Shown here piece after piece: positions 1-22,148 of a stretch of 33,962 nt of DNA. Each line of letters opens with the position of its first letter. Position 1 is the stretch's first letter. The notes under the pieces are model-generated. The model saw only the letters and a program-made list of their open reading frames with translations. It did no database searches and was not told the origin of the DNA. The translations under genes and the position numbers were made by a program. Location: the NCBI GenBank assembly GCA_002189035.1, contig NEEC01000102.1, positions 1-33,962 on the forward strand, read 5' to 3'. Source of the stretch: Utricularia gibba (taxonomy: Eukaryota > Streptophyta > Magnoliopsida > Lamiales > Lentibulariaceae).

Positions 1-367
1 GACCCGAATTCCGGCCCGATCGGTGACCCACAAAAGCGCCTTCTCAAGTGTAAGCATGCTGTTGAAAAAATTTGGGTGGTCATGAGATCCTAACTTCAAT
101 AAAGGTATCACGATTTTCGTCGAATGGGACCTTATTGTGCTGTGAAGTCAGACGAACCTTGGGTCCGAACGAAGTTCCCAACAACAGCACCCGCCAAAAA
201 ACGACAACTTTTCCTTGAAAAAGCATGTAGGCAGCCGCCGAAAACCCAACGTTAATAAATGCATCACTTTTTTGGCCGGGCCAAATGACTATGGGCCAGA
301 GCGCGACTCGACCATTTGCTCGATACTAGTGCCAGCTTAGAGCACCTCGTCAAATAAAAATCAGGTT
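1..367. repeat. Partial unit at left edge (A2 tail, B1, B2)
   Basis: The window opens inside an A2 subunit (1-60), followed by B1 (61-213) and B2 (214-367). This copy is noisier than those that follow. It lacks two bases in the A2 tail (CGATCGGTG instead of CGATCTCGGTG), lacks the AGC after the A-run that opens B1, and has substitutions such as AGCTTAGAGC for AGCCTAGAGC in B2. The noise may reflect low consensus quality at a contig or read end, or a genuinely older copy. Confidence 0.9.
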
Positions 368-3300
368 GTTGAGAAAACCATTTGGGGCGCTCATGACATC
401 CTAACTTCATTAAATGCATCACGATTTTCATCGAGTAGGACCCGATTGGGCTCAGGAGCCAGACCAAACCTTGGGCCCTTACAAAGCTGCCAACGACAGC
501 ACCGCCTTAAAACGGCAAGCTGTTGCTTGAAAAACCATGTGGGCAGCCGCCGACAACCCAACGTTAATAAATGCATCACTTCTTTTGTCGGGCTACAGCT
601 GACTTTGGGCCCGAGCTCGACCCGAATTCCGGCCCGATCTCGGTGACCCACAAAAGCGCCTTCTCAAGTGTATAGCATGCTGTTGAAAAAAGCATTTGGG
701 GTGGTCATGAGATCCTAACTTCAATAAAGGTATCACGATTTTCGTCGAATGGGACCTTATTGTGCTGTGAAGTCAGACCGAACCTTGGGTCCGGACGAAG
801 TTCCCAACAACAGCACCCGCCAAAAAAACGACAACTTTTCCTTGAAAAAGCATGTAGGCAGCCGCCGAAAACCCAACGTTAATAAATGCATCACTTTTTT
901 GGCCGGGCTACAAATGACTATGGGCCAGAGCGCGACTCGACCATTTGCTCGATACTAGTGCCAGCCTAGAGCACCTCGTCAAATATAAATCAGGTTGTTG
1001 AGAAAACCATTTGGGGCGCTCATGACATCCTAACTTCATTAAATGCATCACGATTTTCATCGAGTAGGACCCGATTGGGCTCAGGAGCCAGACCAAACCT
1101 TGGGCCCTTACAAAGCTGCCAACGACAGCACCCGCCTTAAAACGGCAAGCTGTTGCTTGAAAAACCATGTGGGCAGCCGCCGACAACCAACGTTAATAAA
1201 TGCATCACTTCTTTTGTCGGGCTACAGCTGACTTTGGGCCCGAGCTCGACCCGAATTCCGGCCCGATCTCGGTGACCCACAAAAGCGCCTTCTCAAGTGT
1301 ATAGCATGCTGTTGAAAAAAGCATTTGGGGTGGTCATGAGATCCTAACTTCAATAAAGGTATCACGATTTTCGTCGAATGGGACCTTATTGTGCTGTGAA
1401 GTCAGACCGAACCTTGGGTCCGGACGAAGTTCCCAAACAAGCACCCGCCAAAAAACGACAACTTTTCCTTGAAAAAGCATGTAGGCAGCCGCCGAAAACC
1501 CAACGTTAATAAATGCATCACTTTTTTTGGCCGGGCTACAAATGACTATGGGCCAGAGCGCGACTCGACCATTTGCTCGATACTAGTGCCAGCCTAGAGC
1601 ACCTCGTCAAATATAAATCAGGTTGTTGAGAAAACCATTTGGGGCGCTCATGACATCCTAACTTCATTAAATGCATCACGATTTTCATCGAGTAGGACCC
1701 GATTGGGCTCAGGAGCCAGACCAAACCTTGGGCCCTTACAAAGCTGCCAACGACAGCACCCGCCTTAAAACGGCAAGCTGTTGCTTGAAAAACCATGTGG
1801 GCAGCCGCCGACAACCCAACGTTAATAAATGCATCACTTCTTTTGTCGGGCTACAGCTGACTTTGGGCCCGAGCTCGACCCGAATTCCGGCCCGATCTCG
1901 GTGACCCACAAAAGCGCCTTCTCAAGTGTATAGCATGCTGTTGAAAAAAGCATTTGGGGTGGTCATGAGATCCTAACTTCAATAAAGGTATCACGATTTT
2001 CGTCGAATGGGACCTTATTGTGCTGTGAAGTCAGACCGAACCTTGGGTCCGGACGAAGTTCCCAACAACAGCACCCGCCAAAAAACGACAACTTTTCCTT
2101 GAAAAAGCATGTAGGCAGCCGCCGAAAACCCAACGTTAATAAATGCATCACTTTTTTGGCCGGGCTAAAATGACTATGGGCCAGAGCGCGACTCGACCAT
2201 TTGCTCGATACTAGTGCCAGCCTAGAGCACCTCGTCAATATAAATCAGGTTGTTGAGAAAACCATTTGGGGCGCTCATGACATCCTAACTTCATTAAATG
2301 CATCACGATTTTCATCGAGTAGGACCCGATTGGGCTCAGGAGCCAGACCAAACCTTGGGCCCTTACAAAGCTGCCAACGACAGCACCCGCCTTAAAACGG
2401 CAAGCTGTTGCTTGAAAAACCATGTGGGCAGCCGCCGACAACCCAACGTTAATAAATGCATCACTTCTTTTGTCGGGCTACAGCTGACTTTGGGCCCGAG
2501 CTCGACCCGAATTCCGGCCCGATCTCGGTGACCCACAAAAGCGCCTTCTCAAGTGTATAGCATGCTGTTGAAAAAAGCATTTGGGGTGGTCATGAGATCC
2601 TAACTTCAATAAAGGTATCACGATTTTCGTCGAATGGGACCTTATTGTGCTGTGAAGTCAGACCGAACCTTGGGTCCGGACGAAGTTCCCAACAACAGCA
2701 CCCGCCAAAAAACGACAACTTTTCCTTGAAAAAGCATGTAGGCAGCCGCCGAAAACCCAACGTTAATAAATGCATCACTTTTTTGGCCGGGCTACAAATG
2801 ACTATGGGCCAGAGCGCGACTCGACCATTTGCTCGATACTAGTGCCAGCCTAGAGCACCTCGTCAAATATAAATCAGGTTGTTGAGAAAACCATTTGGGG
2901 CGCTCATGACATCCTAACTTCATTAAATGCATCACGATTTTCATCGAGTAGGACCCGATTGGGCTCAGGAGCCAGACCAAACCTTGGGCCCTTACAAAGC
3001 TGCCAACGACAGCACCCGCCTTAAAACGGCAAGCTGTTGCTTGAAAAACCATGTGGGCAGCCGCCGACAACCCAACGTTAATAAATGCATCACTTCTTTT
3101 GTCGGGCTACAGCTGACTTTGGGCCCGAGCTCGACCCGAATTCCGGCCCGATCTCGGTGACCCACAAAAGCGCCTTCTCAAGTGTATAGCATGCTGTTGA
3201 AAAAAGCATTTGGGGTATGAGATCCTAACTTCAATAAAGGTATCACGATTTTCGTCGAATGGGACCTTATTGTGCTGTGAAGTCAGACCGAACCTTGGGT

Positions 3301-6018
3301 CCGGACGAAGTTCCCAACAACAGCACCCGCCAAAAAACGACAACTTTTCCTTGAAAAAGCATGTAGGCAGCCGCCGAAAACCCAACGTTAATAAATGCAT
3401 CACTTTTTTGGCCGGGCTACAAATGACTATGGGCCAGAGCGCGACTCGACCATTTGCTCGATACTAGTGCCAGCCTAGAGCACCTCGTCAAATATAAATC
3501 AGGTTGTTGAGAAAACCATTTGGGGCGCTCATGACATCCTAACTTCATTAAATGCATCACGATTTTCATCGAGTAGGACCCGATTGGGCTCAGGAGCCAG
3601 ACCAAACCTTGGGCCCTTACAAAGCTGCCAACGACAGCACCCGCCTTAAAACGGCAAGCTGTTGCTTGAAAAACCATGTGGGCAGCCGCCGACAACCCAA
3701 CGTTAATAAATGCATCACTTCTTTTGTCGGGCTACAGCTGACTTTGGGCCCGAGCTCGACCCGAATTCCGGCCCGATCTCGGTGACCCACAAAAGCGCCT
3801 TCTCAAGTGTATAGCATGCTGTTGAAAAAAGCATTTGGGGTGGTCATGAGATCCTAACTTCAATAAAGGTATCACGATTTTCGTCGAATGGGACCTTATT
3901 GTGCTGTGAAGTCAGACCGAACCTTGGGTCCGGACGAAGTTCCCAACAACAGCACCCGCCAAAAAACGACAACTTTTCCTTGAAAAAGCATGTAGGCAGC
4001 CGCCGAAAACCCAACGTTAATAAATGCATCACTTTTTTGGCCGGGCTACAAATGACTATGGGCCAGAGCGCGACTCGACCATTTGCTCGATACTAGTGCC
4101 AGCCTAGAGCACCTCGTCAAATATAAATCAGGTTGTTGAGAAAACCATTTGGGGCGCTCATGACATCCTAACTTCATTAAATGCATCACGATTTTCATCG
4201 AGTAGGACCCGATTGGGCTCAGGAGCCAGACCAAACCTTGGGCCCTTACAAAGCTGCCAACGACAGCACCCGCCTTAAAACGGCAAGCTGTTGCTTGAAA
4301 AACCATGTGGGCAGCCGCCGACAACCCAACGTTAATAAATGCATCACTTCTTTTGTCGGGCTACAGCTGACTTTGGGCCCGAGCTCGACCCGAATTCCGG
4401 CCCGATCTCGGTGACCCACAAAAGCGCCTTCTCAAGTGTAGCATGCTGTTGAAAAAAGCATTTGGGGTGGTCATGAGATCCTAACTTCAATAAAGGTATC
4501 ACGATTTTCGTCGAATGGGACCTTATTGTGCTGTGAAGTCAGACCGAACCTTGGGTCCGGACGAAGTTCCCAACAACAGCACCCGCCAAAAAACGACAAC
4601 TTTTCCTTGAAAAAGCATGTAGGCAGCCGCCGAAAACCCAACGTTAATAAATGCATCACTTTTTTGGCCGGGCTACAAATGACTATGGGCCAGAGCGCGA
4701 CTCGACCATTTGCTCGATACTAGTGCCAGCCTAGAGCACCTCGTCAAATATAAATCAGGTTGTTGAGAAAACCATTTGGGGCGCTCATGACATCCTAACT
4801 TCATTAAATGCATCACGATTTTCATCGAGTAGGACCCGATTGGGCTCAGGAGCCAGACCAAACCTTGGGCCCTTACAAAGCTGCCAACGACAGCACCCGC
4901 CTTAAAACGGCAAGCTGTTGCTTGAAAAACCATGTGGGCAGCCGCCGACAACCCAACGTTAATAAATGCATCACTTCTTTTGTCGGGCTACAGCTGACTT
5001 TGGGCCCGAGCTCGACCCGAATTCCGGCCCGATCTCGGTGACCCACAAAAGCGCCTTCTCAAGTGTATAGCATGCTGTTGAAAAAAGCATTTGGGGTGGT
5101 CATGAGATCCTAACTTCAATAAAGGTATCACGATTTTCGTCGAATGGGACCTTATTGTGCTGTGAAGTCAGACCGAACCTTGGGTCCGGACGAAGTTCCC
5201 AACAACAGCACCCGCCAAAAAACGACAACTTTTCCTTGAAAAAGCATGTAGGCAGCCGCCGAAAACCCAACGTTAATAAATGCATCACTTTTTTGGCCGG
5301 GCTACAAATGACTATGGGCCAGAGCGCGACTCGACCATTTGCTCGATACTAGTGCCAGCCTAGAGCACCTCGTCAAATATAAATCAGGTTGTTGAGAAAA
5401 CCATTTGGGGCGCTCATGACATCCTAACTTCATTAAATGCATCACGATTTTCATCGAGTAGGACCCGATTGGGCTCAGGAGCCAGACCAAACCTTGGGCC
5501 CTTACAAAGCTGCCAACGACAGCACCCGCCTTAAAACGGCAAGCTGTTGCTTGAAAAACCATGTGGGCAGCCGCCGACAACCCAACGTTAATAAATGCAT
5601 CACTTCTTTTGTCGGGCTACAGCTGACTTTGGGCCCGAGCTCGACCCGAATTCCGGCCCGATCTCGGTGACCCACAAAAGCGCCTTCTCAAGTGTATAGC
5701 ATGCTGTTGAAAAAAGCATTTGGGGTGGTCATGAGATCCTAACTTCAATAAAGGTATCACGATTTTCGTCGAATGGGACCTTATTGTGCTGTGAAGTCAG
5801 ACCGAACCTTGGGTCCGGACGAAGTTCCCAACAACAGCACCCGCCAAAAAACGACAACTTTTCCTTGAAAAAGCATGTAGGCAGCCGCCGAAAACCCAAC
5901 GTTAATAAATGCATCACTTTTTTGGCCGGGCTACAAATGACTATGGGCCAGAGCGCGACTCGACCATTTGCTCGATACTAGTGCCAGCCTAGAGCACCTC
6001 GTCAATATAAATCAGGTT
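368..6018. repeat. Left block, subfamily L, nine units with small indels
   Basis: Units start at 368, 997, 1625, 2252, 2881, 3506, 4135, 4762 and 5391, with lengths 629, 628, 627, 629, 625, 629, 627, 629 and 628. They share the L-type diagnostic bases: CATCCTAAC and GGGCTCAGG in A1, TTTTGTCGGG and CCCGAGCTCGACC in A2, and GGTCATGAGATCC in B1. Differences are almost only short indels. Examples are a 4-bp loss of GGTC near 3216, a 2-bp loss in the A2 tail near 4440, an extra T in the run near 1521, and one missing A in the B2 tail near 2236 and again near 6004. Confidence 0.95.
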
Positions 6019-6647
6019 GTTGAGAAAACCATTTGGGGCGCTCATGACATCCTAACTTCATTAAATGCATCACGATTTTCATCGAGTAGGACCCGATTGG
6101 GCTCAGGAGCCAGACCAAACCTTGGGCCCTTACAAAGCTGCCAACGACAGCACCCGCCTTAAAACGGCAAGCTGTTGCTTGAAAAACCATGTGGGCAGCC
6201 GCCGACAACCCAACGTTAATAAATGCATCACTTCTTTTGTCGGGCTACAGCTGACTTTGGGCCCGAGCTCGACCCGAATTCCGGCCCGATCTCGGTGACC
6301 CACAAAAGCGCCTTCTCAAGTGTATAGCATGCTGTTGAAAAAAGCATTTGGGGTGGTCATGAGATCCTAACTTCAATAAAGGTATCACGATTTTCGTCGA
6401 ATGGGACCTTATTGTGCTGTGAAGTCAGACCGAACCTTGGGTCCGGACGAAGTTCCCAACAACAGCACCCGCCAAAAAACGACAACTTTTCCTTGAAAAA
6501 GCATGTAGGCAGCCGCCGAAAACCCAACGTTAATAAATGCATCACTTTTTTGGCCGGGCTACAAATGACTATGGGCCAGAGCGCGACTCGACCATTTGCT
6601 CGATACTAGTGCCAGCCTAGAGCACCTCGTCAAATATAAATCAGGTT

Positions 6648-6806
6648 GTTGAGAAAACCATTTGGGGCGCTCATGACATCCTAACTTCATTAAATGCATC
6701 ACGATTTTCATCGAGTAGGACCCGATTGGGCTCAGGAGCCAGACCAAACCTTGGGCCCTTACAAAGCTGCCAACGACAGCACCCGCCTTAAAACGGCAAG
6801 CTGTTG
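6648..6806. repeat. Reference subunit A1 (159 bp)
   Basis: First subunit of the reference unit. It opens with GTTGAGAAAACCATTTGG and contains the block ATTAAATGCATCACGATTTT, then a C/A-rich second half with AGCCAGACCAAACCTTGGG. It aligns best with B1: both have TAACTTCA-TAAA--ATCACGATTTTC at the same offset. It aligns more weakly with A2 and B2, sharing the opening TTGA-AAA-CAT and the ATGCATCAC block. In the right half of the window it carries CATCATAAC and GGGCTAAGG instead of CATCCTAAC and GGGCTCAGG. Confidence 0.9.
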
Positions 6807-6904
6807 CTTGAAAAACCATGTGGGCAGCCGCCGACAACCCAACGTTAATAAATGCATCACTTCTTTTGTCGGGCTACAGCTGACTTTGGGCCCGAGCTCG
6901 ACCC

Positions 6905-6910
6905 GAATTC
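6905..6910. other. EcoRI site GAATTC, one per unit
   Basis: GAATTC lies in the second half of A2 and recurs once per 629-bp unit through nearly the whole window. It predicts an EcoRI ladder of about 629 bp from genomic DNA. SpeI (ACTAGT, in B2) and PvuII (CAGCTG, in A2) also occur about once per unit. SacI (GAGCTC, in A2) marks the L block and is lost where the sequence becomes GAGCCG or AAGCCCG. Confidence 0.9.
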
Positions 6911-6954
6911 CGGCCCGATCTCGGTGACCCACAAAAGCGCCTTCTCAAGTGTAT

Positions 6955-6962
6955 AGCATGCT
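6955..6962. other. 8-bp palindrome AGCATGCT at A2/B1 junction
   Basis: A perfect palindrome sits at the end of A2, directly before the start of B1, and recurs in nearly every unit. The three or four bases before it vary (GTATAGC, GTAAGC, GTAGC, GTGGC), so the A/B junction is an indel hotspot. No function is known to me. It is reported as a recurrent structural landmark. Confidence 0.7.
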
Positions 6963-7120
6963 GTTGAAAAAAGCATTTGGGGTGGTCATGAGATCCTAAC
7001 TTCAATAAAGGTATCACGATTTTCGTCGAATGGGACCTTATTGTGCTGTGAAGTCAGACCGAACCTTGGGTCCGGACGAAGTTCCCAACAACAGCACCCG
7101 CCAAAAAACGACAACTTTTC
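6963..7120. repeat. Reference subunit B1 (158 bp)
   Basis: Third subunit. It opens with GTTGAAAAAAGCATTTGG and is the only one of the four where the ATGCATCAC block reads GGTATCAC. It contains the dyad TTCG-T-CGAA and ends in an A-run and T-run (CCAAAAAACGACAACTTTTC). It is the sister of A1. In subfamily R it reads GGTCTTGAGATCCTCAC instead of GGTCATGAGATCCTAAC. Confidence 0.9.
7022..7030. other. Short dyad TTCG-T-CGAA in B1
   Basis: A 4-bp inverted repeat around one central T occurs in B1 of nearly every unit. The homologous place in A1 reads TTCATCGAG and has lost the symmetry. It is short enough to be chance, but it is kept in both subfamilies. A protein-binding role is only a possibility. 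Confidence 0.5.
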
Positions 7121-7276
7121 CTTGAAAAAGCATGTAGGCAGCCGCCGAAAACCCAACGTTAATAAATGCATCACTTTTTTGGCCGGGCTACAAATGACTA
7201 TGGGCCAGAGCGCGACTCGACCATTTGCTCGATACTAGTGCCAGCCTAGAGCACCTCGTCAAATATAAATCAGGTT
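7121..7276. repeat. Reference subunit B2 (156 bp)
   Basis: Fourth subunit. It opens with CTTGAAAAAGCATGTAGG, then GCAGCCGCCGAAAACCC and TTAATAAATGCATCACTTT, and ends with GATACTAGTGCCAGCC and a T/A-rich tail (CAAATATAAATCAG). It is the sister of A2. It is the best-conserved subunit across the window: even in the scrambled zone its head is usually intact, and it does not carry the L/R diagnostic differences seen in A1, A2 and B1. Confidence 0.9.
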
Positions 7277-10200
7277 GTTGAGAAAACCATTTGGGGCGCT
7301 CATGACATCCTAACTTCATTAAATGCATCACGATTTTCATCGAGTAGGACCCGATTGGGCTCAGGAGCCAGACCAAACCTTGGGCCCTTACAAAGCTGCC
7401 AACGACAGCACCCGCCTTAAAACGGCAAGCTGTTGCTTGAAAAACCATGTGGGCAGCCGCCGACAACCCAACGTTAATAAATGCATCACTTCTTTTGTCG
7501 GGCTACAGCTGACTTTGGGCCCGAGCTCGACCCGAATTCCGGCCCGATCTCGGTGACCCACAAAAGCGCCTTCTCAAGTGTATAGCATGCTGTTGAAAAA
7601 AGCATTTGGGGTGGTCATGAGATCCTAACTTCAATAAAGGTATCACGATTTTCGTCGAATGGGACCTTATTGTGCTGTGAAGTCAGACCGAACCTTGGGT
7701 CCGGACGAAGTTCCCAACAACAGCACCCGCCAAAAAACGACAACTTTTCCTTGAAAAAGCATGTAGGCAGCCGCCGAAAACCCAACGTTAATAAATGCAT
7801 CACTTTTTTGGCCGGGCTACAAATGACTATGGGCCAGAGCGCGACTCGACCATTTGCTCGATACTAGTGCCAGCCTAGAGCACCTCGTCAAATATAAATC
7901 AGGTTGTTGAGAAAACCATTTGGGGCGCTCATGACATCCTAACTTCATTAAATGCATCACGATTTTCATCGAGTAGGACCCGATTGGGCTCAGGAGCCAG
8001 ACCAAACCTTGGGCCCTTACAAAGCTGCCAACGACAGCACCCGCCTTAAAACGGCAAGCTGTTGCTTGAAAAACCATGTGGGCAGCCGCCGACAACCCAA
8101 CGTTAATAAATGCATCACTTCTTTTGTCGGGCTACAGCTGACTTTGGGCCCGAGCTCGACCCGAATTCCGGCCCGATCTCGGTGACCCACAAAAGCGCCT
8201 TCTCAAGTGTATAGCATGCTGTTGAAAAAAGCATTTGGGGTGGTCATGAGATCCTAACTTCAATAAAGGTATCACGATTTTCGTCGAATGGGACCTTATT
8301 GTGCTGTGAAGTCAGACCGAACCTTGGGTCCGGACGAAGTTCCCAACAACAGCACCCGCCAAAAAACGACAACTTTTCCTTGAAAAAGCATGTAGGCAGC
8401 CGCCGAAAACCCAACGTTAATAAATGCATCACTTTTTTGGCCGGGCTACAAATGACTATGGGCCAGAGCGCGACTCGACCATTTGCTCGATACTAGTGCC
8501 AGCCTAGAGCACCTCGTCAAATATAAATCAGGTTGTTGAGAAAACCATTTGGGGCGCTCATGACATCCTAACTTCATTAAATGCATCACGATTTTCATCG
8601 AGTAGGACCCGATTGGGCTCAGGAGCCAGACCAAACCTTGGGCCCTTACAAAGCTGCCAACGACAGCACCCGCCTTAAAACGGCAAGCTGTTGCTTGAAA
8701 AACCATGTGGGCAGCCGCCGACAACCCAACGTTAATAAATGCATCACTTCTTTTGTCGGGCTACAGCTGACTTTGGGCCCGAGCTCGACCCGAATTCCGG
8801 CCCGATCTCGGTGACCCACAAAAGCGCCTTCTCAAGTGTATAGCATGCTGTTGAAAAAAGCATTTGGGGTGGTCATGAGATCCTAACTTCAATAAAGGTA
8901 TCACGATTTTCGTCGAATGGGACCTTATTGTGCTGTGAAGTCAGACCGAACCTTGGGTCCGGACGAAGTTCCCAACAACAGCACCCGCCAAAAAACGACA
9001 ACTTTTCCTTGAAAAAGCATGTAGGCAGCCGCCGAAAACCCAACGTTAATAAATGCATCACTTTTTTGGCCGGGCTACAAATGACTATGGGCCAGAGCGC
9101 GACTCGACCATTTGCTCGATACTAGTGCCAGCCTAGAGCACCTCGTCAAATATAAATCAGGTTGTTGAGAAAACCATTTGGGGCGCTCATGACATCCTAA
9201 CTTCATTAAATGCATCACGATTTTCATCGAGTAGGACCCGATTGGGCTCAGGAGCCAGACCAAACCTTGGGCCCTTACAAAGCTGCCAACGACAGCACCC
9301 GCCTTAAAACGGCAAGCTGTTGCTTGAAAAACCATGTGGGCAGCCGCCGACAACCCAACGTTAATAAATGCATCACTTCTTTTGTCGGGCTACAGCTGAC
9401 TTTGGGCCCGAGCTCGACCCGAATTCCGGCCCGATCTCGGTGACCCACAAAAGCGCCTTCTCAAGTGTATAGCATGCTGTTGAAAAAAGCATTTGGGGTG
9501 GTCATGAGATCCTAACTTCAATAAAGGTATCACGATTTTCGTCGAATGGGACCTTATTGTGCTGTGAAGTCAGACCGAACCTTGGGTCCGGACGAAGTTC
9601 CCAACAACAGCACCCGCCAAAAAACGACAACTTTTCCTTGAAAAAGCATGTAGGCAGCCGCCGAAAACCCAACGTTAATAAATGCATCACTTTTTTGGCC
9701 GGGCTACAAATGACTATGGGCCAGAGCGCGACTCGACCATTTGCTCGATACTAGTGCCAGCCTAGAGCACCTCGTCAAATATAAATCAGGTTGTTGAGAA
9801 AACCATTTGGGGCGCTCATGACATCCTAACTTCATTAAATGCATCACGATTTTCATCGAGTAGGACCCGATTGGGCTCAGGAGCCAGACCAAACCTTGGG
9901 CCCTTACAAAGCTGCCAACGACAGCACCCGCCTTAAAACGGCAAGCTGTTGCTTGAAAAACCATGTGGGCAGCCGCCGACAACCCAACGTTAATAAATGC
10001 ATCACTTCTTTTGTCGGGCTACAGCTGACTTTGGGCCCGAGCTCGACCCGAATTCCGGCCCGATCTCGGTGACCCACAAAAGCGCCTTCTCAAGTGTATA
10101 GCATGCTGTTGAAAAAAGCATTTGGGGTGGTCATGAGATCCTAACTTCAATAAAGGTATCACGATTTTCGTCGAATGGGACCTTATTGTGCTGTGAAGTC

Positions 10201-11050
10201 AGACCGAACCTTGGGTCCGGACGAAGTTCCCAACAACAGCACCCGCCAAAAAACGACAACTTTTCCTTGAAAAAGCATGTAGGCAGCCGCCGAAAACCCA
10301 ACGTTAATAAATGCATCACTTTTTTGGCCGGGCTACAAATGACTATGGGCCAGAGCGCGACTCGACCATTTGCTCGATACTAGTGCCAGCCTAGAGCACC
10401 TCGTCAAATATAAATCAGGTTGTTGAGAAAACCATTTGGGGCGCTCATGACATCCTAACTTCATTAAATGCATCACGATTTTCATCGAGTAGGACCCGAT
10501 TGGGCTCAGGAGCCAGACCAAACCTTGGGCCCTTACAAAGCTGCCAACGACAGCACCCGCCTTAAAACGGCAAGCTGTTGCTTGAAAAACCATGTGGGCA
10601 GCCGCCGACAACCCAACGTTAATAAATGCATCACTTCTTTTGTCGGGCTACAGCTGACTTTGGGCCCGAGCTCGACCCGAATTCCGGCCCGATCTCGGTG
10701 ACCCACAAAAGCGCCTTCTCAAGTGTATAGCATGCTGTTGAAAAAAGCATTTGGGGTGGTCATGAGATCCTAACTTCAATAAAGGTATCACGATTTTCGT
10801 CGAATGGGACCTTATTGTGCTGTGAAGTCAGACCGAACCTTGGGTCCGGACGAAGTTCCCAACAACAGCACCCGCCAAAAAACGACAACTTTTCCTTGAA
10901 AAAGCATGTAGGCAGCCGCCGAAAACCCAACGTTAATAAATGCATCACTTTTTTGGCCGGGCTACAAATGACTATGGGCCAGAGCGCGACTCGACCATTT
11001 GCTCGATACTAGTGCCAGCCTAGAGCACCTCGTCAAATATAAATCAGGTT

Positions 11051-14000
11051 GTTGAGAAAACCATTTGGGGCGCTCATGACATCCTAACTTCATTAAATGC
11101 ATCACGATTTTCATCGAGTAGGACCCGATTGGGCTCAGGAGCCAGACCAAACCTTGGGCCCTTACAAAGCTGCCAACGACAGCACCCGCCTTAAAACGGC
11201 AAGCTGTTGCTTGAAAAACCATGTGGGCAGCCGCCGACAACCCAACGTTAATAAATGCATCACTTCTTTTGTCGGGCTACAGCTGACTTTGGGCCCGAGC
11301 TCGACCCGAATTCCGGCCCGATCTCGGTGACCCACAAAAGCGCCTTCTCAAGTGTATAGCATGCTGTTGAAAAAAGCATTTGGGGTGGTCATGAGATCCT
11401 AACTTCAATAAAGGTATCACGATTTTCGTCGAATGGGACCTTATTGTGCTGTGAAGTCAGACCGAACCTTGGGTCCGGACGAAGTTCCCAACAACAGCAC
11501 CGCCAAAAAACGACAACTTTTCCTTGAAAAAGCATGTAGGCAGCCGCCGAAAACCCAACGTTAATAAATGCATCACTTTTTTGGCCGGGCTACAAATGAC
11601 TATGGGCCAGAGCGCGACTCGACCATTTGCTCGATACTAGTGCCAGCCTAGAGCACCTCGTCAAATATAAATCAGGTTGTTGAGAAAACCATTTGGGGCG
11701 CTCATGACATCCTAACTTCATTAAATGCATCACGATTTTCATCGAGTAGGACCCGATTGGGCTCAGGAGCCAGACCAAACCTTGGGCCCTTACAAAGCTG
11801 CCAACGACAGCACCCGCCTTAAAACGGCAAGCTGTTGCTTGAAAAACCATGTGGGCAGCCGCCGACAACCCAACGTTAATAAATGCATCACTTCTTTTGT
11901 CGGGCTACAGCTGACTTTGCCCGAGCTCGACCCGAATTCCGGCCCGATCTCGGTGACCCACAAAAGCGCCTTCTCAAGTGTATAGCATGCTGTTGAAAAA
12001 AGCATTTGGGGTGGTCATGAGATCCTAACTTCAATAAAGGTATCACGATTTTCGTCGAATGGGACCTTATTGTGCTGTGAAGTCAGACCGAACCTTGGGT
12101 CCGGACGAAGTTCCCAACAACAGCACCCGCCAAAAAACGACAACTTTTCCTTGAAAAAGCATGTAGGCAGCCGCCGAAAACCCAACGTTAATAAATGCAT
12201 CACTTTTTTGGCCGGGCTACAAATGACTATGGGCCAGAGCGCGACTCGACCATTTGCTCGATACTAGTGCCAGCCTAGAGCACCTCGTCAAATATAAATC
12301 AGGTTGTTGAGAAAACCATTTGGGGCGCTCATGACATCCTAACTTCATTAAATGCATCACGATTTTCATCGAGTAGGACCCGATTGGGCTCAGGAGCCAG
12401 ACCAAACCTTGGGCCCTTACAAAGCTGCCAACGACAGCACCCGCCTTAAAACGGCAAGCTGTTGCTTGAAAAACCATGTGGGCAGCCGCCGACAACCCAA
12501 CGTTAATAAATGCATCACTTCTTTTGTCGGGCTACAGCTGACTTTGGGCCCGAGCCGACCCGAATTCCGGCCCGATCTCGGTGACCCACAAAAGCGCCTT
12601 CTCAAGTGTAAGCATGCTGTTGAAAAAAGCATTTGGGGTGGTCATGAGATCCTAACTTCAATAAAGGTATCACGATTTTCGTCGAATGGGACCTTATTGT
12701 GCTGTGAAGTCAGACCGAACCTTGGGTCCGGACGAAGTTCCCAACAACAGCACCCGCCAAAAAACGACAACTTTTCCTTGAAAAAGCATGTAGGCAGCCG
12801 CCGAAAACCCAACGTTAATAAATGCATCACTTTTTTGGCCGGGCTACAAATGACTATGGGCCAGAGCGCGACTCGACCATTTGCTCGATACTAGTGCCAG
12901 CCTAGAGCACCTCGTCAAATATAAATCAGGTTGTTGAGAAAACCATTTGGGGCGCTCATGACATCCTAACTTCATTAAATGCATCACGATTTTCATCGAG
13001 TAGGACCCGATTGGGCTCAGGAGCCAGACCAAACCTTGGGCCCTTACAAAGCTGCCAACGACAGCACCCGCCTTAAAACGGCAAGCTGTTGCTTGAAAAA
13101 CCATGTGGGCAGCCGCCGACAACCCAACGTTAATAAATGCATCACTTCTTTTGTCGGGCTACAGCTGACTTTGGGCCCGAGCTCGACCCGAATTCCGGCC
13201 CGATCTCGGTGACCCACAAAAGCGCCTTCTCAAGTGTATAGCATGCTGTTGAAAAAAGCATTTGGGGTGGTCATGAGATCCTAACTTCAATAAAGGTATC
13301 ACGATTTTCGTCGAATGGGACCTTATTGTGCTGTGAAGTCAGACCGAACCTTGGGTCCGGACGAAGTTCCCAACAACAGCACCCGCCAAAAAACGACAAC
13401 TTTTCCTTGAAAAAGCATGTAGGCAGCCGCCGAAAACCCAACGTTAATAAATGCATCACTTTTTTGGCCGGGCTACAAATGACTATGGGCCAGAGCGCGA
13501 CTCGACCATTTGCTCGATACTAGTGCCAGCCTAGAGCACCTCGTCAAATATAAATCAGGTTGTTGAGAAAACCATTTGGGGCGCTCATGACATCCTAACT
13601 TCATTAAATGCATCACGATTTTCATCGAGTAGGACCCGATTGGGCTCAGGAGCCAGACCAAACCTTGGGCCCTTACAAAGCTGCCAACGACAGCACCCGC
13701 CTTAAAACGGCAAGCTGTTGCTTGAAAAACCATGTGGGCAGCCGCCGACAACCCAACGTTAATAAATGCATCACTTCTTTTGTCGGGCTACAGCTGACTT
13801 TGGCCCGAGCTCGACCCGAATTCCGGCCCGATCTCGGTGACCCACAAAAGCGCCTTCTCAAGTGGCATGCTGTTGAAAAAAGCATTTGGGGTGGTCATGA
13901 GATCCTAACTTCAATAAAGGTATCACGATTTTCGTCGAATGGGACCTTATTGTGCTGTGAAGTCAGACCGAACCTTGGGTCCGGACGAAGTTCCCAACAA

Positions 14001-16070
14001 CAGCACCCGCCAAAAAACGACAACTTTTCCTTGAAAAAGCATGTAGGCAGCCGCCGAAAACCCAACGTTAATAAATGCATCACTTTTTTGGCCGGGCTAC
14101 AAATGACTATGGGCCAGAGCGCGACTCGACCATTTGCTCGATACTAGTGCCAGCCTAGAGCACCTCGTCAAATATAAATCAGGTTGTTGAGAAAACCATT
14201 TGGGGCGCTCATGACATCCTAACTTCATTAAATGCATCACGATTTTCATCGAGTAGGACCCGATTGGGCTCAGGAGCCAGACCAAACCTTGGGCCCTTAC
14301 AAAGCTGCCAACGACAGCACCCGCCTTAAAACGGCAAGCTGTTGCTTGAAAAACCATGTGGGCAGCCGCCGACAACCCAACGTTAATAAATGCATCACTT
14401 CTTTTGTCGGGCTACAGCTGACTTTGGGCCCGAGCTCGACCCGAATTCCGGCCCGATCTCGGTGACCCACAAAAGCGCCTTCTCAAGTGTATAGCATGCT
14501 GTTGAAAAAAGCATTTGGGGTGGTCATGAGATCCTAACTTCAATAAAGGTATCACGATTTTCGTCGAATGGGACCTTATTGTGCTGTGAAGTCAGACCGA
14601 ACCTTGGGTCCGGACGAAGTTCCCAACAACAGCACCCGCCAAAAAACGACAACTTTTCCTTGAAAAAGCATGTAGGCAGCCGCCGAAAACCCAACGTTAA
14701 TAAATGCATCACTTTTTTGGCCGGGCTACAAATGACTATGGGCCAGAGCGCGACTCGACCATTTGCTCGATACTAGTGCCAGCCTAGAGCACCTCGTCAA
14801 ATATAAATCAGGTTGTTGAGAAAACCATTTGGGGCGCTCATGACATCCTAACTTCATTAAATGCATCACGATTTTCATCGAGTAGGACCCGATTGGGCTA
14901 GGAGCCAGACCAAACCTTGGGCCCTTACAAAGCTGCCAACGACAGCACCCGCCTTAAAACGGCAAGCTGTTGCTTGAAAAACCATGTGGGCAGCCGCCGA
15001 CAACCCAACGTTAATAAATGCATCACTTCTTTTGTCGGGCTACAGCTGACTTTGGGCCCGAGCCGACCCGAATTCCGGCCCGATCTCGGTGACCCACAAA
15101 AGCGCCTTCTCAAGTGTATAGCATGCTGTTGAAAAAAGCATTTGGGGTGGTCATGAGATCCTAACTTCAATAAAGGTATCACGATTTTCGTCGAATGGGA
15201 CCTTATTGTGCTGTGAAGTCAGACCGAACCTTGGGTCCGGACGAAGTTCCCAACAACAGCACCCGCCAAAAAACGACAACTTTTCCTTGAAAAAGCATGT
15301 AGGCAGCCGCCGAAAACCCAACGTTAATAAATGCATCACTTTTTTGGCCGGGCTACAAATGACTATGGGCCAGAGCGCGACTCGACCATTTGCTCGATAC
15401 TAGTGCCAGCCTAGAGCACCTCGTCAAATATAAATCAGGTTGTTGAGAAAACCATTTGGGGCGCTCATGACATCCTAACTTCATTAAATGCATCACGATT
15501 TTCATCGAGTAGGACCCGATTGGGCTCAGGAGCCAGACCAAACCTTGGGCCCTTACAAAGCTGCCAACGACAGCACCCGCCTTAAAACGGCAAGCTGTTG
15601 CTTGAAAAACCATGTGGGCAGCCGCCGACAACCCAACGTTAATAAATGCATCACTTCTTTTGTCGGGCTACAGCTGACTTTGGCCCCGAGCTCGACCCGA
15701 ATTCCGGCCCGATCTCGGTGACCCACAAAAGCGCCTTCTCAAGTGTATAGCATGCTGTTGAAAAAAGCATTTGGGGTGGTCATGAGATCCTAACTTCAAT
15801 AAAGGTATCACGATTTTCGTCGAATGGGACCTTATTGTGCTGTGAAGTCAGACCGAACCTTGGGTCCGGACGAAGTTCCCAACAACAGCACCCGCCAAAA
15901 AACGACAACTTTTCCTTGAAAAAGCATGTAGGCAGCCGCCGAAAACCCAACGTTAATAAATGCATCACTTTTTTGGCCGGGCTACAAATGACTATGGGCC
16001 AGAGCGCGACTCGACCATTTGCTCGATACTAGTGCCAGCCTAGAGCACCTCGTCAAATATAAATCAGGTT
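11051..16070. repeat. Left block continued, eight units with recurrent small indels
   Basis: Units start at 11051, 11679, 12306, 12933, 13562, 14186, 14815 and 15442, with lengths 628, 627, 627, 629, 624, 629, 627 and 629. All are subfamily L. The 12306 unit carries two 1-bp losses (GAGCCGACC and GTGTAAGC). The 13562 unit loses one G in the A2 tail and four bases at the A/B junction. The 14815 unit has GGGCTAGG and GAGCCGACC. The 15442 unit has one substitution, GGCCCCGAG for GGGCCCGAG. Some deletions restore a common frame between A and B, which is why spurious 179-180-codon open frames cross 12352-12894 and 13608-14147. Confidence 0.93.
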
Positions 16071-16685
16071 GTTGAGAAAACCATTTGGGGCGCTCATGAC
16101 ATCCTAACTTCATTAAATGCATCACGATTTTCATCGAGTAGGACCCGATTGGGCTCAGGAGCCAGACCAAACCTTGGGCCCTTACAAAGCTGCCAACGAC
16201 AGCACCCGCCTTAAAACGGCAAGCTGTTGCTTGAAAAACCATGTGGGCAGCCGCCGACAACCCAACGTTAATAAATGCATCACTTCTTTTGCGGGCTACA
16301 GCTGAAGCTCGACCCGAATTCCGGCCCGATCTCGGTGACCCACAAAAGCGCCTTCTCAAGTGTATAGCATGCTGTTGAAAAAAGCATTTGGGGTGGTCTG
16401 AGATCCTAACTTCAATAAAGGTATCACGATTTTCGTCGAATGGGACCTTATTGTGCTGTGAAGTCAGACCGAACCTTGGGTCCGGACGAAGTTCCCAACA
16501 ACAGCACCCGCCAAAAAACGACAACTTTTCCTTGAAAAAGCATGTAGGCAGCCGCCGAAAACCCAACGTTAATAAATGCATCACTTTTTTGGCCGGGCTA
16601 AAATGACTATGGGCCAGAGCGCGACTCGACCATTTGCTCGATACTAGTGCCAGCCTAGAGCACCTCGTCAAATATAAATCAGGTT
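16071..16685. repeat. Shortened unit, 615 bp
   Basis: This unit is 14 bp short. One T is missing before CGGGCTAC (near 16291), 11 bp are missing between CAGCTGA and AGCTCGACC (near 16306), one A in B1 (near 16399) and one C in B2 (near 16601). Because 615 is a multiple of 3, a minus-strand frame runs through it without a stop and creates the longest open frame in the window, 297 codons at 15982-16875. That frame is a by-product of the deletion, not a gene. Confidence 0.93.
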
Positions 16686-19195
16686 GTTGAGAAAACCATT
16701 TGGGGCGCTCATGACATCCTAACTTCATTAAATGCATCACGATTTTCATCGAGTAGGACCCGATTGGGCTCAGGAGCCAGACCAAACCTTGGGCCCTTAC
16801 AAAGCTGCCAACGACAGCACCCGCCTTAAAACGGCAAGCTGTTGCTTGAAAAACCATGTGGGCAGCCGCCGACAACCCAACGTTAATAAATGCATCACTT
16901 CTTTTGTCGGGCTACAGCTGACTTTGGGCCCGAGCTCGACCCGAATTCCGGCCCGATCTCGGTGACCCACAAAAGCGCCTTCTCAAGTGTATAGCATGCT
17001 GTTGAAAAAAGCATTTGGGGTGGTCATGAGATCCTAACTTCAATAAAGGTATCACGATTTTCGTCGAATGGGACCTTATTGTGCTGTGAAGTCAGACCGA
17101 ACCTTGGGTCCGGACGAAGTTCCCAACAACAGCACCCGCCAAAAAACGACAACTTTTCCTTGAAAAAGCATGTAGGCAGCCGCCGAAAACCCAACGTTAA
17201 TAAATGCATCACTTTTTTGGCCGGGCTACAAATGACTATGGGCCAGAGCGCGACTCGACCATTTGCTCGATACTAGTGCCAGCCTAGAGCACCTCGTCAA
17301 ATATAAATCAGGTTGTTGAGAAAACCATTTGGGGCGCTCATGACATCCTAACTTCATTAAATGCATCACGATTTTCATCGAGTAGGACCCGATTGGGCTC
17401 AGGAGCCAGACCAAACCTTGGGCCCTTACAAAGCTGCCAACGACAGCACCCGCCTTAAAACGGCAAGCTGTTGCTTGAAAAACCATGTGGGCAGCCGCCG
17501 ACAACCCAACGTTAATAAATGCATCACTTCTTTTGTCGGGCTACAGCTGACTTTGGGCCCGAGCCGACCCGAATTCCGGCCCGATCTCGGTGACCCACAA
17601 AAGCGCCTTCTCAAGTGTAAGCATGCTGTTGAAAAAAGCATTTGGGGTGGTCATGAGATCCTAACTTCAATAAAGGTATCACGATTTTCGTCGAATGGGA
17701 CCTTATTGTGCTGTGAAGTCAGACCGAACCTTGGGTCCGGACGAAGTTCCCAACAACAGCACCCGCCAAAAAACGACAACTTTTCCTTGAAAAAGCATGT
17801 AGGCAGCCGCCGAAAACCCAACGTTAATAAATGCATCACTTTTTTGGCCGGGCTACAAATGACTATGGGCCAGAGCGCGACTCGACCATTTGCTCGATAC
17901 TAGTGCCAGCCTAGAGCACCTCGTCAAATATAAATCAGGTTGTTGAGAAAACCATTTGGGGCGCTCATGACATCCTAACTTCATTAAATGCATCACGATT
18001 TTCATCGAGTAGGACCCGATTGGGCTCAGGAGCCAGACCAAACCTTGGGCCCTTACAAAGCTGCCAACGACAGCACCCGCCTTAAAACGGCAAGCTGTTG
18101 CTTGAAAAACCATGTGGGCAGCCGCCGACAACCCAACGTTAATAAATGCATCACTTCTTTTGTCGGGCTACAGCTGACTTTGGGCCCGAGCTCGACCCGA
18201 ATTCCGGCCCGATCTCGGTGACCCACAAAAGCGCCTTCTCAAGTGTAAGCATGCTGTTGAAAAAAGCATTTGGGGTGGTCATGAGATCCTAACTTCAATA
18301 AAGGTATCACGATTTTCGTCGAATGGGACCTTATTGTGCTGTGAAGTCAGACCGAACCTTGGGTCCGGACGAAGTTCCCAACAACAGCACCGCCAAAAAA
18401 CGACAACTTTTCCTTGAAAAAGCATGTAGGCAGCCGCCGAAAACCCAACGTTAATAAATGCATCACTTTTTTGGCCGGGCTACAAATGACTATGGGCCAG
18501 AGCGCGACTCGACCATTTGCTCGATACTAGTGCCAGCCTAGAGCACCTCGTCAAATATAAATCAGGTTGTTGAGAAAACCATTTGGGGCGCTCATGACAT
18601 CCTAACTTCATTAAATGCATCACGATTTTCATCGAGTAGGACCCGATTGGGCTCAGGAGCCAGACCAAACCTTGGGCCCTTACAAAGCTGCCAACGACAG
18701 CACCCGCCTTAAAACGGCAAGCTGTTGCTTGAAAAACCATGTGGGCAGCCGCCGACAACCCAACGTTAATAAATGCATCACTTCTTTTGTCGGGCTACAG
18801 CTGACTTTGGGCCCGAGCCGACCCGAATTCCGGCCCGATCTCGGTGACCCACAAAAGCGCCTTCTCAAGTGTAAGCATGCTGTTGAAAAAAGCATTTGGG
18901 GTGGTCATGAGATCCTAACTTCAATAAAGGTATCACGATTTTCGTCGAATGGGACCTTATTGTGCTGTGAAGTCAGACCGAACCTTGGGTCCGGACGAAG
19001 TTCCCAACAACAGCACCCGCCAAAAAACGACAACTTTTCCTTGAAAAAGCATGTAGGCAGCCGCCGAAAACCCAACGTTAATAAATGCATCACTTTTTTG
19101 GCCGGGCTACAAATGACTATGGGCCAGAGCGCGACTCGACCATTTGCTCGATACTAGTGCCAGCCTAGAGCACCTCGTCAAATATAAATCAGGTT
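16686..19195. repeat. Left block, last four regular L units
   Basis: Units start at 16686, 17315, 17942 and 18569, with lengths 629, 627, 627 and 627. The 17315 and 18569 units carry the same pair of 1-bp losses (GAGCCGACC plus GTGTAAGC) seen in the 12306 unit. The 17942 unit has GTGTAAGC plus a lost C in the CACCCGCC run, the latter also seen in the 11051 unit. Subunit order is intact. Confidence 0.93.
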
Positions 19196-19805
19196 GTTGA
19201 GAAAACCATTTGGGGCGCTCATGACATCCTAACTTCATTAAATGCATCACGATTTTCATCGAGTAGGACCCGATTGGGCTCAGGAGCCAGACCAAACCTT
19301 GGGCCCTTACAAAGCTGCCAACGACAGCACCCGCCTTAAAACGGCAAGCTGTTGCTTGAAAAACCATGTGGGCAGCCGCCGACAACCCAACGTTAATAAA
19401 TGCATCACTTCTTTTGTCGGGCTACAGCTGACTTTGGGCCCGAGCCCGACCCGAATTCCGGCCCGATCTCGGTGACCCACAAAAGCGCCTTCTCAAGTGT
19501 ATAGCATGCTGTTGAAAAAAGCATTTGGGTGGTCATGAGATCCTAACTTCAATAAAGGTATCACGATTTTCGTCGAATGGGACCTTATTGTGCTGTGAAG
19601 TCAGACCGAACCTTGGGTCCGGACGAAGTTCCCAACAACAGCACCCGCCAAAAAACGACAACTTTTCCTTGAAAAAGCATGTAGGCAGCCGCCGAAAACC
19701 CAACGTTAATAAATGCATCACTTTTTTGGCTGACTATGGGCTGCGACTCGACCATTTGCTCGATACTAGTGCCAGCCTAGAGCACCTCGTCAAATAAATC
19801 AGGTT
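19196..19805. repeat. Shortened unit, 610 bp, B2 deletion
   Basis: A1 and A2 are L-type, but the A2 tail reads GAGCCCGACC, a first hint of the R form. B1 has TTTGGGTGG (one G lost). In B2 about 11 bp are missing between TTTTTTGGC and TGACTATGGG (near 19730), a few more before TGCGACTCG (near 19741), and two in the tail (CAAATAAATC). This is the first strongly shortened unit, and it starts the indel-rich stretch. Confidence 0.93.
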
Positions 19806-20346
19806 GTTGAGAAAACCATTTGGGGCGCTCATGACATCCTAACTTCATTAAATGCATCACGATTTTCATCGAGTAGGACCCGATTGGGCTCAGGAGCCAG
19901 ACCAAACCTTGGGCCCTTACAAAGCTGCCAACGACAGCACCCGCCTTAAAACGGCAAGCTGTTGCTTGAAAAACCATGTGGGCAGCCGCCGACAACCCAA
20001 CGTTAATAAATGCATCACTTCTTTTCGGGCTACAGCTGACTTTGGGCCCGAGCTCGACCCGAATTCCGGCCCGATCTCGGTGACCCACAAAAGCATGCTG
20101 CTGTGAAAAAAGCATTTTGGGACCGGTCACCTTGGGTCCAGACGAAGTCACTTCCCAACAACAGCACCCGCCAAAAAACGACAACTTTTCCTTGAAAAAG
20201 CATGTAGGCAGCCGCCGAAAACCCAACGTTAATAAATGCATCACTTTTTTGGCCGGGCTACAAATGACTATGGGCCAGAGCGCGACTCGACCATTTGCTC
20301 GATACTAGTGCCAGCCTAGAGCACCTCGTCAAATATAAATCAGGTT
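19806..20346. repeat. Shortened unit, 541 bp, most of B1 lost
   Basis: A1 is intact and A2 loses two bases near 20025. At 20092 a 19-bp stretch is missing between two AGC triplets, consistent with a microhomology deletion. B1 is reduced to its opening plus a rearranged piece: after GAAAAAAGCATTTTGGG the sequence jumps through ACCGGTCACC to CTTGGGTCCAGACGAAGT, so about 70 bp of B1 are lost. B2 (from about 20189) is normal. Confidence 0.92.
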
Positions 20347-20948
20347 GTTGAGAAAACCATTTGGGGCGCTCATGACATTAACTTCATTAAATGCATCACG
20401 ATTTTCATCGAGTAGGACCCGATTGGCTCAGGAGCCAGACCAAACCTTGGGCCCTTACAAAGCTGCCAACGACAGCACCCGCCTTAAAACGGCAAGCTGT
20501 TGCTTGAAAAACCATGTGGGCAGCCGCCGACAACGTTAATAAATCACTTCTTTTGCGGGCTACAGCTGACAAGCCGACCCGAATTCCGGCCCGATCTCGG
20601 TGACCCACAAAAGCGCCTTCTCAAGTGTAGCATGCTGTTGAAAAAAGCATTTGGGTGGTCATGAGATCCTAACTTCAATAAAGGTATCACGATTTTCGTC
20701 GAATGGGACCTTATTGTGCTGTGAAGTCAGACCGAACCTTGGGTCCGGACGAAGTTCCCAACAACAGCACCCGCCAAAAAACGACAACTTTTCCTTGAAA
20801 AAGCATGTAGCAGCCGCCGAAAACCCAACGTTAATAAATGCATCACTTTTTTGGCCGGGCTACAAATGACTATGGGCCAGAGCGCGACTCGACCATTTGC
20901 TCGATACTAGTGCCAGCCTAGAGCACCTCGTCAAATATAAATCAGGTT
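20347..20948. repeat. Shortened unit, 602 bp, many small deletions
   Basis: Deletions are scattered along the unit: CATTAACTTC in A1 (near 20378), GATTGGCTCAGG (20422), ACAACGTTAATAAATCACTTC in A2 with two losses (20531-20550), TTTTGCGGG, GACAAGCCGACC at 20568-20580, TTTGGGTGG, and GTAGCAGCC at 20807. Subunit order is kept. Scattered short deletions in one copy fit either an old, relaxed copy or poor consensus. Confidence 0.9.
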
Positions 20949-21575
20949 GTTGAGAAAACCATTTGGGGCGCTCATGACATCCTAACTTCATTAAATGCAT
21001 CACGATTTTCATCGAGTAGGACCCGATTGGGCTAGGAGCCAGACCAAACCTTGGGCCCTTACAAAGCTGCCAACGACAGCACCCGCCTTAAAACGGCAAG
21101 CTGTTGCTTGAAAAACCATGTGGGCAGCCGCCGACAACCCAACGTTAATAAATGCATCACTTCTTTTGACGGGCTACAGCTGACTTTGGGCCCGAGCCGA
21201 CCCGAATTCCGGCCCGATCTCGGTGACCCACAAAAGCGCCTTCTCAAGTGTATAGCATGCTGTTGAAAAAAGCATTTGGGGTGGTCATGAGATCCTAACT
21301 TCAATAAAGGTATCACGATTTTCGTCGAATGGGACCTTATTGTGCTGTGAAGTCAGACCGAACCTTGGGTCCGGACGAAGTTCCCAACAACAGCACCCGC
21401 CAAAAAACGACAACTTTTCCTTGAAAAAGCATGTAGGCAGCCGCCGAAAACCCAACGTTAATAAATGCATCACTTTTTTGGCCGGGCTACAAATGACTAT
21501 GGGCCAGAGCGCGACTCGACCATTTGCTCGATACTAGTGCCAGCCTAGAGCACCTCGTCAAATATAAATCAGGTT
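20949..21575. repeat. 627-bp unit, first TTTTGACGGG copy
   Basis: Subunits are intact. A1 has GGGCTAGG and A2 has GAGCCGACC, the same pair as in the distant 14815 unit. A2 also has TTTTGACGGG in place of TTTTGTCGGG (near 21169). That T-to-A change is then found in nearly all units to the right, so this is the leftmost copy with a clear R-type substitution. B1 is still L-type. Confidence 0.92.
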
Positions 21576-22148
21576 GTTGAGAAAACCATTTGGGGCGCTC
21601 ATGACATCCTAACTTCATTAAATGCATCACGATTTTCATCGAGTTTGGGCTCAGGAGCCAGACCAAACCTTGGGCCCTTACAAAGCTGCCAACGACAGCA
21701 CCGCCTTAAAACGGCAAGCTGTTGCTTGGTGGGCAGCCGCCGACAACCCAACGTTAATAAATGCATCACTTCTTTTGTACAGCTGACAGCCCGACCGAAT
21801 TCAACCCACAAAAGCGCCTTCTCAAGTGTAAATGCTGTTGAAAAAAGCATTTGGGGTGGTCATGAGATCCTAACTTCAATAAAGGTATCACGATTTTCGT
21901 CGAATGGGACCTTATTGTGCTGTGAAGTCAGACCGAACCTTGGGTCCGGACGAAGTTCCCAACAACAGCACCCGCAAAAAACGACAACTTTTCCTTGAAA
22001 AAGCATGTAGGCAGCCGCCGAAAACCCAACGTTAATAAATGCATCACTTTTTTGGCCGGGCTAAAATGACTATGGGCCAGAGCGCGACTCGACCATTTGC
22101 TCGATACTAGTGCCAGCCTAGAGCACCTCGTCAAATATAAATCAGGTT
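21576..22148. repeat. Shortened unit, 573 bp, multiple deletions in A
   Basis: The A half has lost several pieces: AGGACCCGA after CATCGAG (21644), AAAAACCAT at the A2 opening (21728, reading GCTTGGTGGGC), much of the A2 tail (GTACAGCTGACAGCCCGACC and then GAATTCAACCCAC near 21778-21808), and the junction (GTGTAAATGCTG). B1 and B2 are nearly complete. The A2 form is TTTTGT, L-like, so L and R features alternate here. Confidence 0.9.

What the first reader, a model, noticed from the sequence alone, without database searches (positions are those of the whole stretch)
6648..7276. Three-level nested satellite: ~157 bp, 315 bp, 629 bp
The four subunits of each unit share the opening TTGA-AAA-CAT and a TAAA--ATCAC block at the same offset. 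A1 pairs with B1 and A2 pairs with B2. Lengths are 159, 156, 158 and 156. This records two successive doublings before the tetramer was amplified, and a monomer near nucleosome-repeat length. I do not recognise this family; plant centromeric monomers of about 155-156 bp are known in grasses (CentO, CentC), but similarity of length is not homology.
Basis: partly seen in the sequence, partly recalled or inferred. Interest (0 to 1): 0.7.

Follow-up and report, generated by a model that had tools for sequence, protein, structure and literature searches.

The report
Layered satellite repeat in bladderwort chromosomes
The window is one long stretch of a repeated DNA unit built in three nested levels, part of a large repeat family (roughly 6% of this bladderwort genome assembly) that probably sits at the centromeres of some chromosomes but was not found in those assembled whole, which may be why it was reported missing.

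Summary
The whole 33,962-base contig is a tandem array; 629 bp at 6648-7276 is one unit of four ~157-bp subunits (159, 156, 158, 156). A1 pairs with B1 (80%) and A2 with B2 (83%); type 1 and type 2 are distant but significant homologues. The order A1-A2-B1-B2 is unbroken up to base 24,808.

The genome is very probably Utricularia gibba (COX1 with contiguous cysteines, a matching contig size). A type-2 core of the same 314-bp dimer occurs about 19,000 times (about 6 Mb of 100 Mb), with other higher-order units on other contigs (4, 6, 8, 10 subunits, or none). The first doubling is therefore ancient; A and B may be two dimer lineages brought together rather than a fresh doubling (not settled).

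One contig runs from a telomere through about 3.5 Mb into satellite that was met in samples over its last ~210 kb. Four exact core patterns list no place in C1-C4, two of which are telomere-to-telomere. A paper states that satellites are absent from U. gibba centromeric regions; I suggest survivorship, since satellite-rich centromeres do not assemble. Most likely a (peri)centromeric satellite of a subset of chromosomes. No CENH3 or FISH data were available.

The parts
1..33962 (+). Whole contig is one satellite array, type1-type2 dimer of about 314 bp; no Rfam match at gathering threshold
6648..7276 (+). Reference 629-bp higher-order unit, A1-A2-B1-B2
6648..6806 (+). Subunit A1 (type 1), 159 bp
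6807..6962 (+). Subunit A2 (type 2), 156 bp
6963..7120 (+). Subunit B1 (type 1), 158 bp
7121..7276 (+). Subunit B2 (type 2), 156 bp
61..19667 (+). Block 1: 125 subunits in strict order, 120 of 125 at 98% or more to the reference subunits; departures are mostly short gaps
19668..21836 (+). Stretch with several shortened subunits (88-149 bp), order still kept
20191..24652 (+). Block 1b: same tetramer; in the five A2 copies compared, four base changes (3 to 5 of 5 copies each), all four of which recur in block 2
24653..26466 (+). Junction: shuffled mosaic of A1, A2, B1 and B2 pieces; family subunits cover 90% of 24400-26800; no foreign insert recognised
26467..33962 (+). Block 2: variant tetramer; consensus differs at 3 positions in A1, 6 in A2 (five bases and one inserted base), 2 in B1 and none in B2; units about 98% alike
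6844..6858 (+). One copy of the conserved type-2 core GTTAATAAATGCATC (in A2)

Best explanation
This is a higher-order-repeat array of a large satellite DNA family of Utricularia gibba. An ancestral ~157-bp monomer became a fixed 314-bp dimer (type 1 + type 2) before the sampled sub-families split. Later, dimer variants (A, B, A' and others) were combined and amplified locally by unequal exchange and conversion, so arrays have their own units: a tetramer here, a hexamer, octamer or decamer elsewhere, or plain dimers. I infer that the family forms the centromeric or pericentromeric heterochromatin of a subset of chromosomes, while the chromosomes that assembled whole have little or none of it. 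Shown: sequence, nesting, copy number, several array types, attachment to a telomere-bearing contig, no listed exact core match in C1-C4. Inferred: centromere function, mechanism of amplification, species name.
For: Tetramer lag 99.6% against 78% for the dimer lag. 19,267 matches to a type-2 25-mer with up to 3 mismatches, 0 for the reversed pattern; one hit per 314-354 bp gives about 6.0-6.8 Mb, and 42,900 bases of non-satellite loci gave 0 hits. 15 of 40 systematically chosen contigs begin with it (6 of the 40 all N). Self-comparison: C47 8 subunits, C99 6, C133 10, C460 right end 10, C7 4; C34, C37 and C213 without a clear unit. C213 (3,704,653 bp) starts with a plant-type telomere, carries a PTR2 fragment at 3.40 Mb, has no satellite in samples at 3.30-3.48 Mb, a frayed edge at 3.495-3.503 Mb (one 1-kb sample at 3.500 Mb only 25% satellite), and 95-97% satellite in five samples from 3.55 Mb to its end. 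C402 ends in a diverged form; C460 and C510 have the family at both ends. Sister genus Genlisea has a 161-bp satellite reported to co-localise with a centromere antibody (PMC4542322, passages).
Against: No CENH3 ChIP or FISH. Of 26 ends of 13 contigs over 1 Mb, only 2 are satellite (C402's only 44% of the last 1 kb), 11 are telomere or telomere-like and 13 are neither within the 300-1000 bases read; three of those 13 starts (C375, C409, C505) were only printed in part and counted for telomere repeats. Chromosomes without the family must have another centromere. C460 and C510 carry arrays on both sides of roughly 0.3-0.8 Mb of other DNA in opposite orientation, which a single compact array per chromosome does not predict.
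Confidence: 0.62

Rival explanations
1. The family forms non-centromeric heterochromatin blocks (knobs or interstitial blocks), several per chromosome, and the centromeres are defined by other sequence on all chromosomes.
For: No core match listed in the four contigs C1-C4, two of them telomere-to-telomere; arrays on both sides of C460 and C510; published view that centromeric regions of U. gibba lack satellites (PMC8333044, passages).
Against: C213 runs from telomere through one arm into satellite sampled over about 210 kb at its inner end; abundance and ~157-bp monomer are usual for centromeric satellites (established knowledge).
Confidence: 0.28
2. The arrays belong to a B chromosome or to another organism in the sample.
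For: Five of the 34 readable contigs of one sample have 63-73% GC and look bacterial, so foreign DNA is probably present; satellite contigs are mostly small.
Against: The family is attached to a contig with a plant-type telomere and a PTR2 fragment, and to C402, C460 and C510. C213, C409 and C505, and more weakly C1 and C244 (under the family cut-off), each have a short COX1-like match over about the same model positions, which suggests one genome.
Confidence: 0.05
3. The perfect 629-bp repetition is partly an assembly product: consensus collapse of similar units made the copies look identical.
For: Long-read assembly (inferred); runs of copies identical over thousands of bases, with short gaps as the main departures.
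Against: Block 1, block 1b and block 2 carry different variants, the junction is resolved, and the A/B units recur on C92, C99, C133, C456 and C460. Copy number and length of the array remain uncertain.
Confidence: 0.05

Closest known systems
Centromeric satellites with higher-order repeats, such as primate alpha satellite and its 343-bp New World monkey dimer (PMC4053949, section 11 read)
   Same: Monomer near 160-170 bp, dimer that replaced the monomer as the basic unit, larger multimers nearly identical to each other while subunits differ.
   Different: Unrelated host; no kinetochore evidence; the tetramer and other multimers differ between arrays; no CENP-B box was looked for.
Genlisea nigrocaulis centromeric 161-bp repeat Gn7c161 (PMC4542322, passages)
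   Same: Same plant family (Lentibulariaceae), similar monomer length, most abundant satellite of a tiny genome.
Grass CentO / CentC
   Different: Host is a lamiid eudicot; sequence not compared.
Karyotypes mixing satellite-based and satellite-free centromeres (Equus: PMC9024551 and PMC6627300, search listing only; potato recalled)
   Same: Some chromosomes rich in a satellite, others apparently without.
   Different: There established experimentally; here inferred from sequence alone.

Membership tests
Satellite DNA with higher-order repeats | Long head-to-tail arrays, one orientation per array | tested here: met
Satellite DNA with higher-order repeats | Multimers much more alike than their subunits | tested here: met
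   99.6% at 4 subunits against 78% at 2 subunits
Satellite DNA with higher-order repeats | Subunits of one position cluster together in a tree | tested here: met
Satellite DNA with higher-order repeats | High copy number in the genome | tested here: met
   19,267 hits, reversed control 0
Centromeric satellite | Binds CENH3 nucleosomes | not testable with these tools
   no ChIP data at hand
Centromeric satellite | Present on every chromosome | tested here: not met
   four exact core patterns list nothing in C1-C4; 'works as centromere on a subset' stays open
Centromeric satellite | Lies at the inner end of chromosome arms | tested here: inconclusive
   C213 yes, C402 end diverged form; 13 other ends of large contigs show neither telomere nor satellite
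Genlisea Gn7c161 family | Sequence similarity | tested here: inconclusive
   only two primers available, no better than chance
Grass CentO/CentC | Sequence similarity | not tested
   no sequence fetched; length alone is not evidence

The most novel reading that the evidence does not exclude
Utricularia gibba has two kinds of centromere in one small karyotype: satellite-rich ones built of this family with array-specific higher-order units, and satellite-free ones on the chromosomes that assembled whole. The reported absence of centromeric satellites in this species would then be an effect of which chromosomes could be assembled. The split might follow the two parental subgenomes of this polyploid, and the A/B tetramer might be a join of two dimer lineages.
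Probability: 0.35. Interest if true: 0.72.

Novelty: new member of a known kind. Interest (0 to 1): 0.5.

Why it matters
U. gibba is a model for extreme genome shrinkage, and a published account says its putative centromeric regions have no satellites (PMC8333044, passages). Here roughly 6% of what is very probably its assembly is one satellite family with several different higher-order arrays, attached to at least one telomere-bearing contig. If CENH3 binds it on some chromosomes only, the species becomes a small, tractable plant for comparing satellite-based and satellite-free centromeres in one nucleus, and the nested units give a readable record of how higher-order repeats grow.

Tried and rejected
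A whole-unit DNA search of the genome was not scored because the answer would have been too large. I then used short patterns, which print about 100 places at most. Places of equal mismatch came out in contig order in all lists I saw, so I used exact patterns to see whether C1-C33 hold any (one search does hit C7), and rare-variant patterns to sample other contigs. The 3-mismatch list shows exact places only and says nothing about C1-C4. One search gave 135 hits (3 for the reversed pattern), 100 printed; besides satellite it printed hits on C1, C2, C4, C213 (193 kb), C375, C402, C409, C412, C451 and C460 whose letters do not look like the satellite. I judged these by eye as chance and did not count them. 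One search gave 0 hits for variants at one core base. One search, a pattern specific to this window's A2, gave 183 hits, the first 100 on C92, C99, C106, C113, C133, C174, C435 and C437.

Not upheld: 'two simple doublings' as proven, and equally the joining of two lineages as proven (AU p 0.153; the group was written down after I had seen the quick tree). Not upheld: relation to the Genlisea repeat. Not upheld: a foreign insert at the junction. No known RNA family. Literature searches for this satellite in Utricularia listed no title or abstract start describing it; I read only listings and the named passages. The genome paper (Lan et al. 2017, recalled) is not held, so I cannot exclude that it describes the repeat.

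Dropped rows: subunits shorter than about 135-138 bases were left out of the trees, at most 6 per type and locus or 4-6 dimers per locus were used. Subunits of the junction were meant to be left out of the conservation profile. In one search only window subunits over 90% identity entered the consensus. Three of 19 loci gave no dimer for (C160, C440, C402 end). C137 and C437, already known as satellite, were skipped in the every-12th-contig sample. Subunits were found by blastn with window subunits or sampled ones, which favours conserved stretches.

Full report
What was checked. The window is a complete contig, C437 of a 100,091,633-base assembly in 516 contigs. All of it is one tandem array. 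Like pairs (A1-B1, A2-B2) are 80% and 83% identical, unlike pairs 67-69%. All four unlike pairs are significant against 1000 dinucleotide shuffles (z 7.2 to 9.6) and by blastn (E 4e-10 to 3e-6). So the three levels, 157, 314 and 629, are real.

Fine structure of the window. Tiling gave 220 subunit segments; the order is unbroken up to 24,808, and 8 of 219 steps break it in all. Block 1 (61-19,667) has 125 subunits in strict order, 120 of them at 98% or more. Around 19,668-21,836 several subunits are shortened. The junction 24,653-26,466 is a shuffled mosaic of family pieces. Block 2 (26,467-33,962) is the same tetramer with 11 consensus differences: 3 in A1, 6 in A2, 2 in B1, none in B2. In block 1b (20,191-24,652) the five A2 copies compared carry four base changes, in 3 to 5 copies each, and all four recur in block 2, so variants spread along the array in steps.

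Whose genome. C516 holds a chloroplast-like rbcL and C515 a COX1. That COX1 has two contiguous cysteines, a change described for Utricularia and some Genlisea (PMC3141634, passages). C451 is 6,822,880 bases long, matching 'Unitig_8 (6.8 Mb)' of U. gibba (PMC8333044, passages). I conclude U. gibba with high confidence, by inference.

How much and where. A type-2 25-mer has 2,500 exact hits and 19,267 with up to three mismatches, with none for the reversed pattern. In fetched satellite loci (108,440 bases) there is one such hit per 354 bases, in the window one per 320, and none in 42,900 bases of non-satellite loci, so the family makes up roughly 6 to 6.8 Mb. A type-1 19-mer has 9,394 exact hits. 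In a systematic sample of 40 contigs, of which the first 400 bases were read, 15 begin with satellite, 19 do not and 6 are all N. In an earlier sample of 13 contigs (C20 to C480), 5 begin with satellite, 6 do not and 2 are all N. Of C5 to C10, C7, C8 and C10 do, C5 and C6 do not, C9 is N.

Other arrays. Self-comparison shows different units: 4 subunits in the window (99.6%), 8 in C47 (95.5%), 6 in C99 (91.0%), 10 in C133 (97.0%) and at the right end of C460 (94.8%), and 4 in C7 (94.3%), which is a different sub-family. C34, C37 and C213 show no clear unit (86-93% at most even lags; one 626-base exception of 96% in C34), C92 is irregular, and the C456 stretch mixes 4-subunit units with shifts. 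The arrays tiled keep the type1-type2 alternation over most of their length. In a tree of 206 subunits sampled from 36 loci and the window, types 1 and 2 part at support 1.0 with one stray. The dimer is therefore the ancient unit.

The second level. In a tree of 58 dimers B lies with the C213, C34, C37, C460-left, C240 and C510-end forms (97/91) and A with other forms, but holding A and B (30 rows) together costs only 8.3 log units, p-AU 0.153. Joining of two lineages is favoured, not shown.

Chromosomal place. C213 has a telomere at its start, a PTR2 fragment at 3.40 Mb, no satellite in samples at 3.30, 3.40, 3.45, 3.47 and 3.48 Mb, a frayed array edge around 3.495-3.503 Mb, and 95-97% satellite in five samples from 3.55 Mb to its end. 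C402 ends in a 2.3-kb composite repeat that contains old dimers. C460 and C510 have satellite at both ends in opposite orientation, with none in the samples between. C3 and C4 have telomeres at both ends, C1 and C2 at the start. Four exact patterns with 2,500, 6,685, 10,961 and 9,394 genome hits list none in C1-C4 (23.9 Mb together), which would come first in the listings. Diverged or single copies there could still be missed; a lone copy did turn up by luck in C255. The U. gibba paper speaks of four putatively entire chromosomes (PMC8333044, passages); that C1-C4 are these is my inference. Of 26 ends of 13 contigs over 1 Mb, 11 are telomeric or telomere-like, 2 satellite and 13 neither (three of the 13 were only printed in part and counted for telomere repeats). 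The starts of two further contigs over 1 Mb (C317, C413) show no satellite.

A conserved core. Across sub-families the type-2 stretch GTTAATAAATGCATC is conserved at 0.965 against a mean of 0.85; 10 of 5000 permutations reach this. The best type-1 window does not stand out (4108 of 5000). A single-base variant class of this core had 0 hits genome-wide. A protein-binding box is one reading; common descent with recent amplification is another.

How it likely works. Satellite arrays grow and are homogenised by unequal exchange and conversion (established knowledge); what is seen here fits: array-specific units, stepwise variants, a frayed edge. The place and abundance suggest (peri)centromeric DNA on a subset of chromosomes. 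A 2021 paper speaks of the absence of satellite repeats in putative centromeric regions of U. gibba, citing the genome paper (PMC8333044, passages). My reading is that the chromosomes that could be assembled whole are those without it. Function is not shown.

Novelty. Nested satellites are well known, and higher-order units were reported in 76 of 171 species with Sanger data (PMC4053949, section 11). The word Utricularia does not occur in the main text of that survey. I found no description of this family in the listings of six library searches, but the genome paper was not held. I therefore rate it a new member of a known kind, of medium interest because of the contrast with the published statement.

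Noticed in passing
L145 (C402:2622000-2629907): C402 ends in a composite tandem repeat of about 2.33 kb (98% at that lag) in which about three old satellite dimers are embedded in roughly 1.5 kb of other sequence.
   Followed up: partly
L043:2453-2857 (C255 near 1,208,450-1,208,860): A lone copy of about 2.5 subunits, 87-89% like A1 and A2, in a 36% GC stretch of a large contig with no array around it in 5 kb.
   Followed up: partly
C460 and C510, both ends: Contigs of 881 and 382 kb carry satellite on both ends in opposite orientation; C460 has a C213-type array on the left and an A/B decamer on the right.
   Followed up: partly
C29, C89, C341, C461, C497, first 400 bases: Small contigs with 63-73% GC, probably bacterial DNA in the assembly.
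   Followed up: no
C1, C2, C409, C505, C515 and several small contigs: Contig lengths are exact multiples of 2,500, and the ends of C1, C2, C409 and C505 lack telomeres; ends may have been trimmed.
   Followed up: no
L003:2207-3658 (C515): The COX1 frame runs on into a LAGLIDADG-like reading frame, as in the mobile group I intron of angiosperm cox1 (recalled, not tested).
   Followed up: no
L144 (C7:1-8000): A diverged sub-family has formed its own tetramer, with two type-2 variants alternating about every 313 bp.
   Followed up: partly
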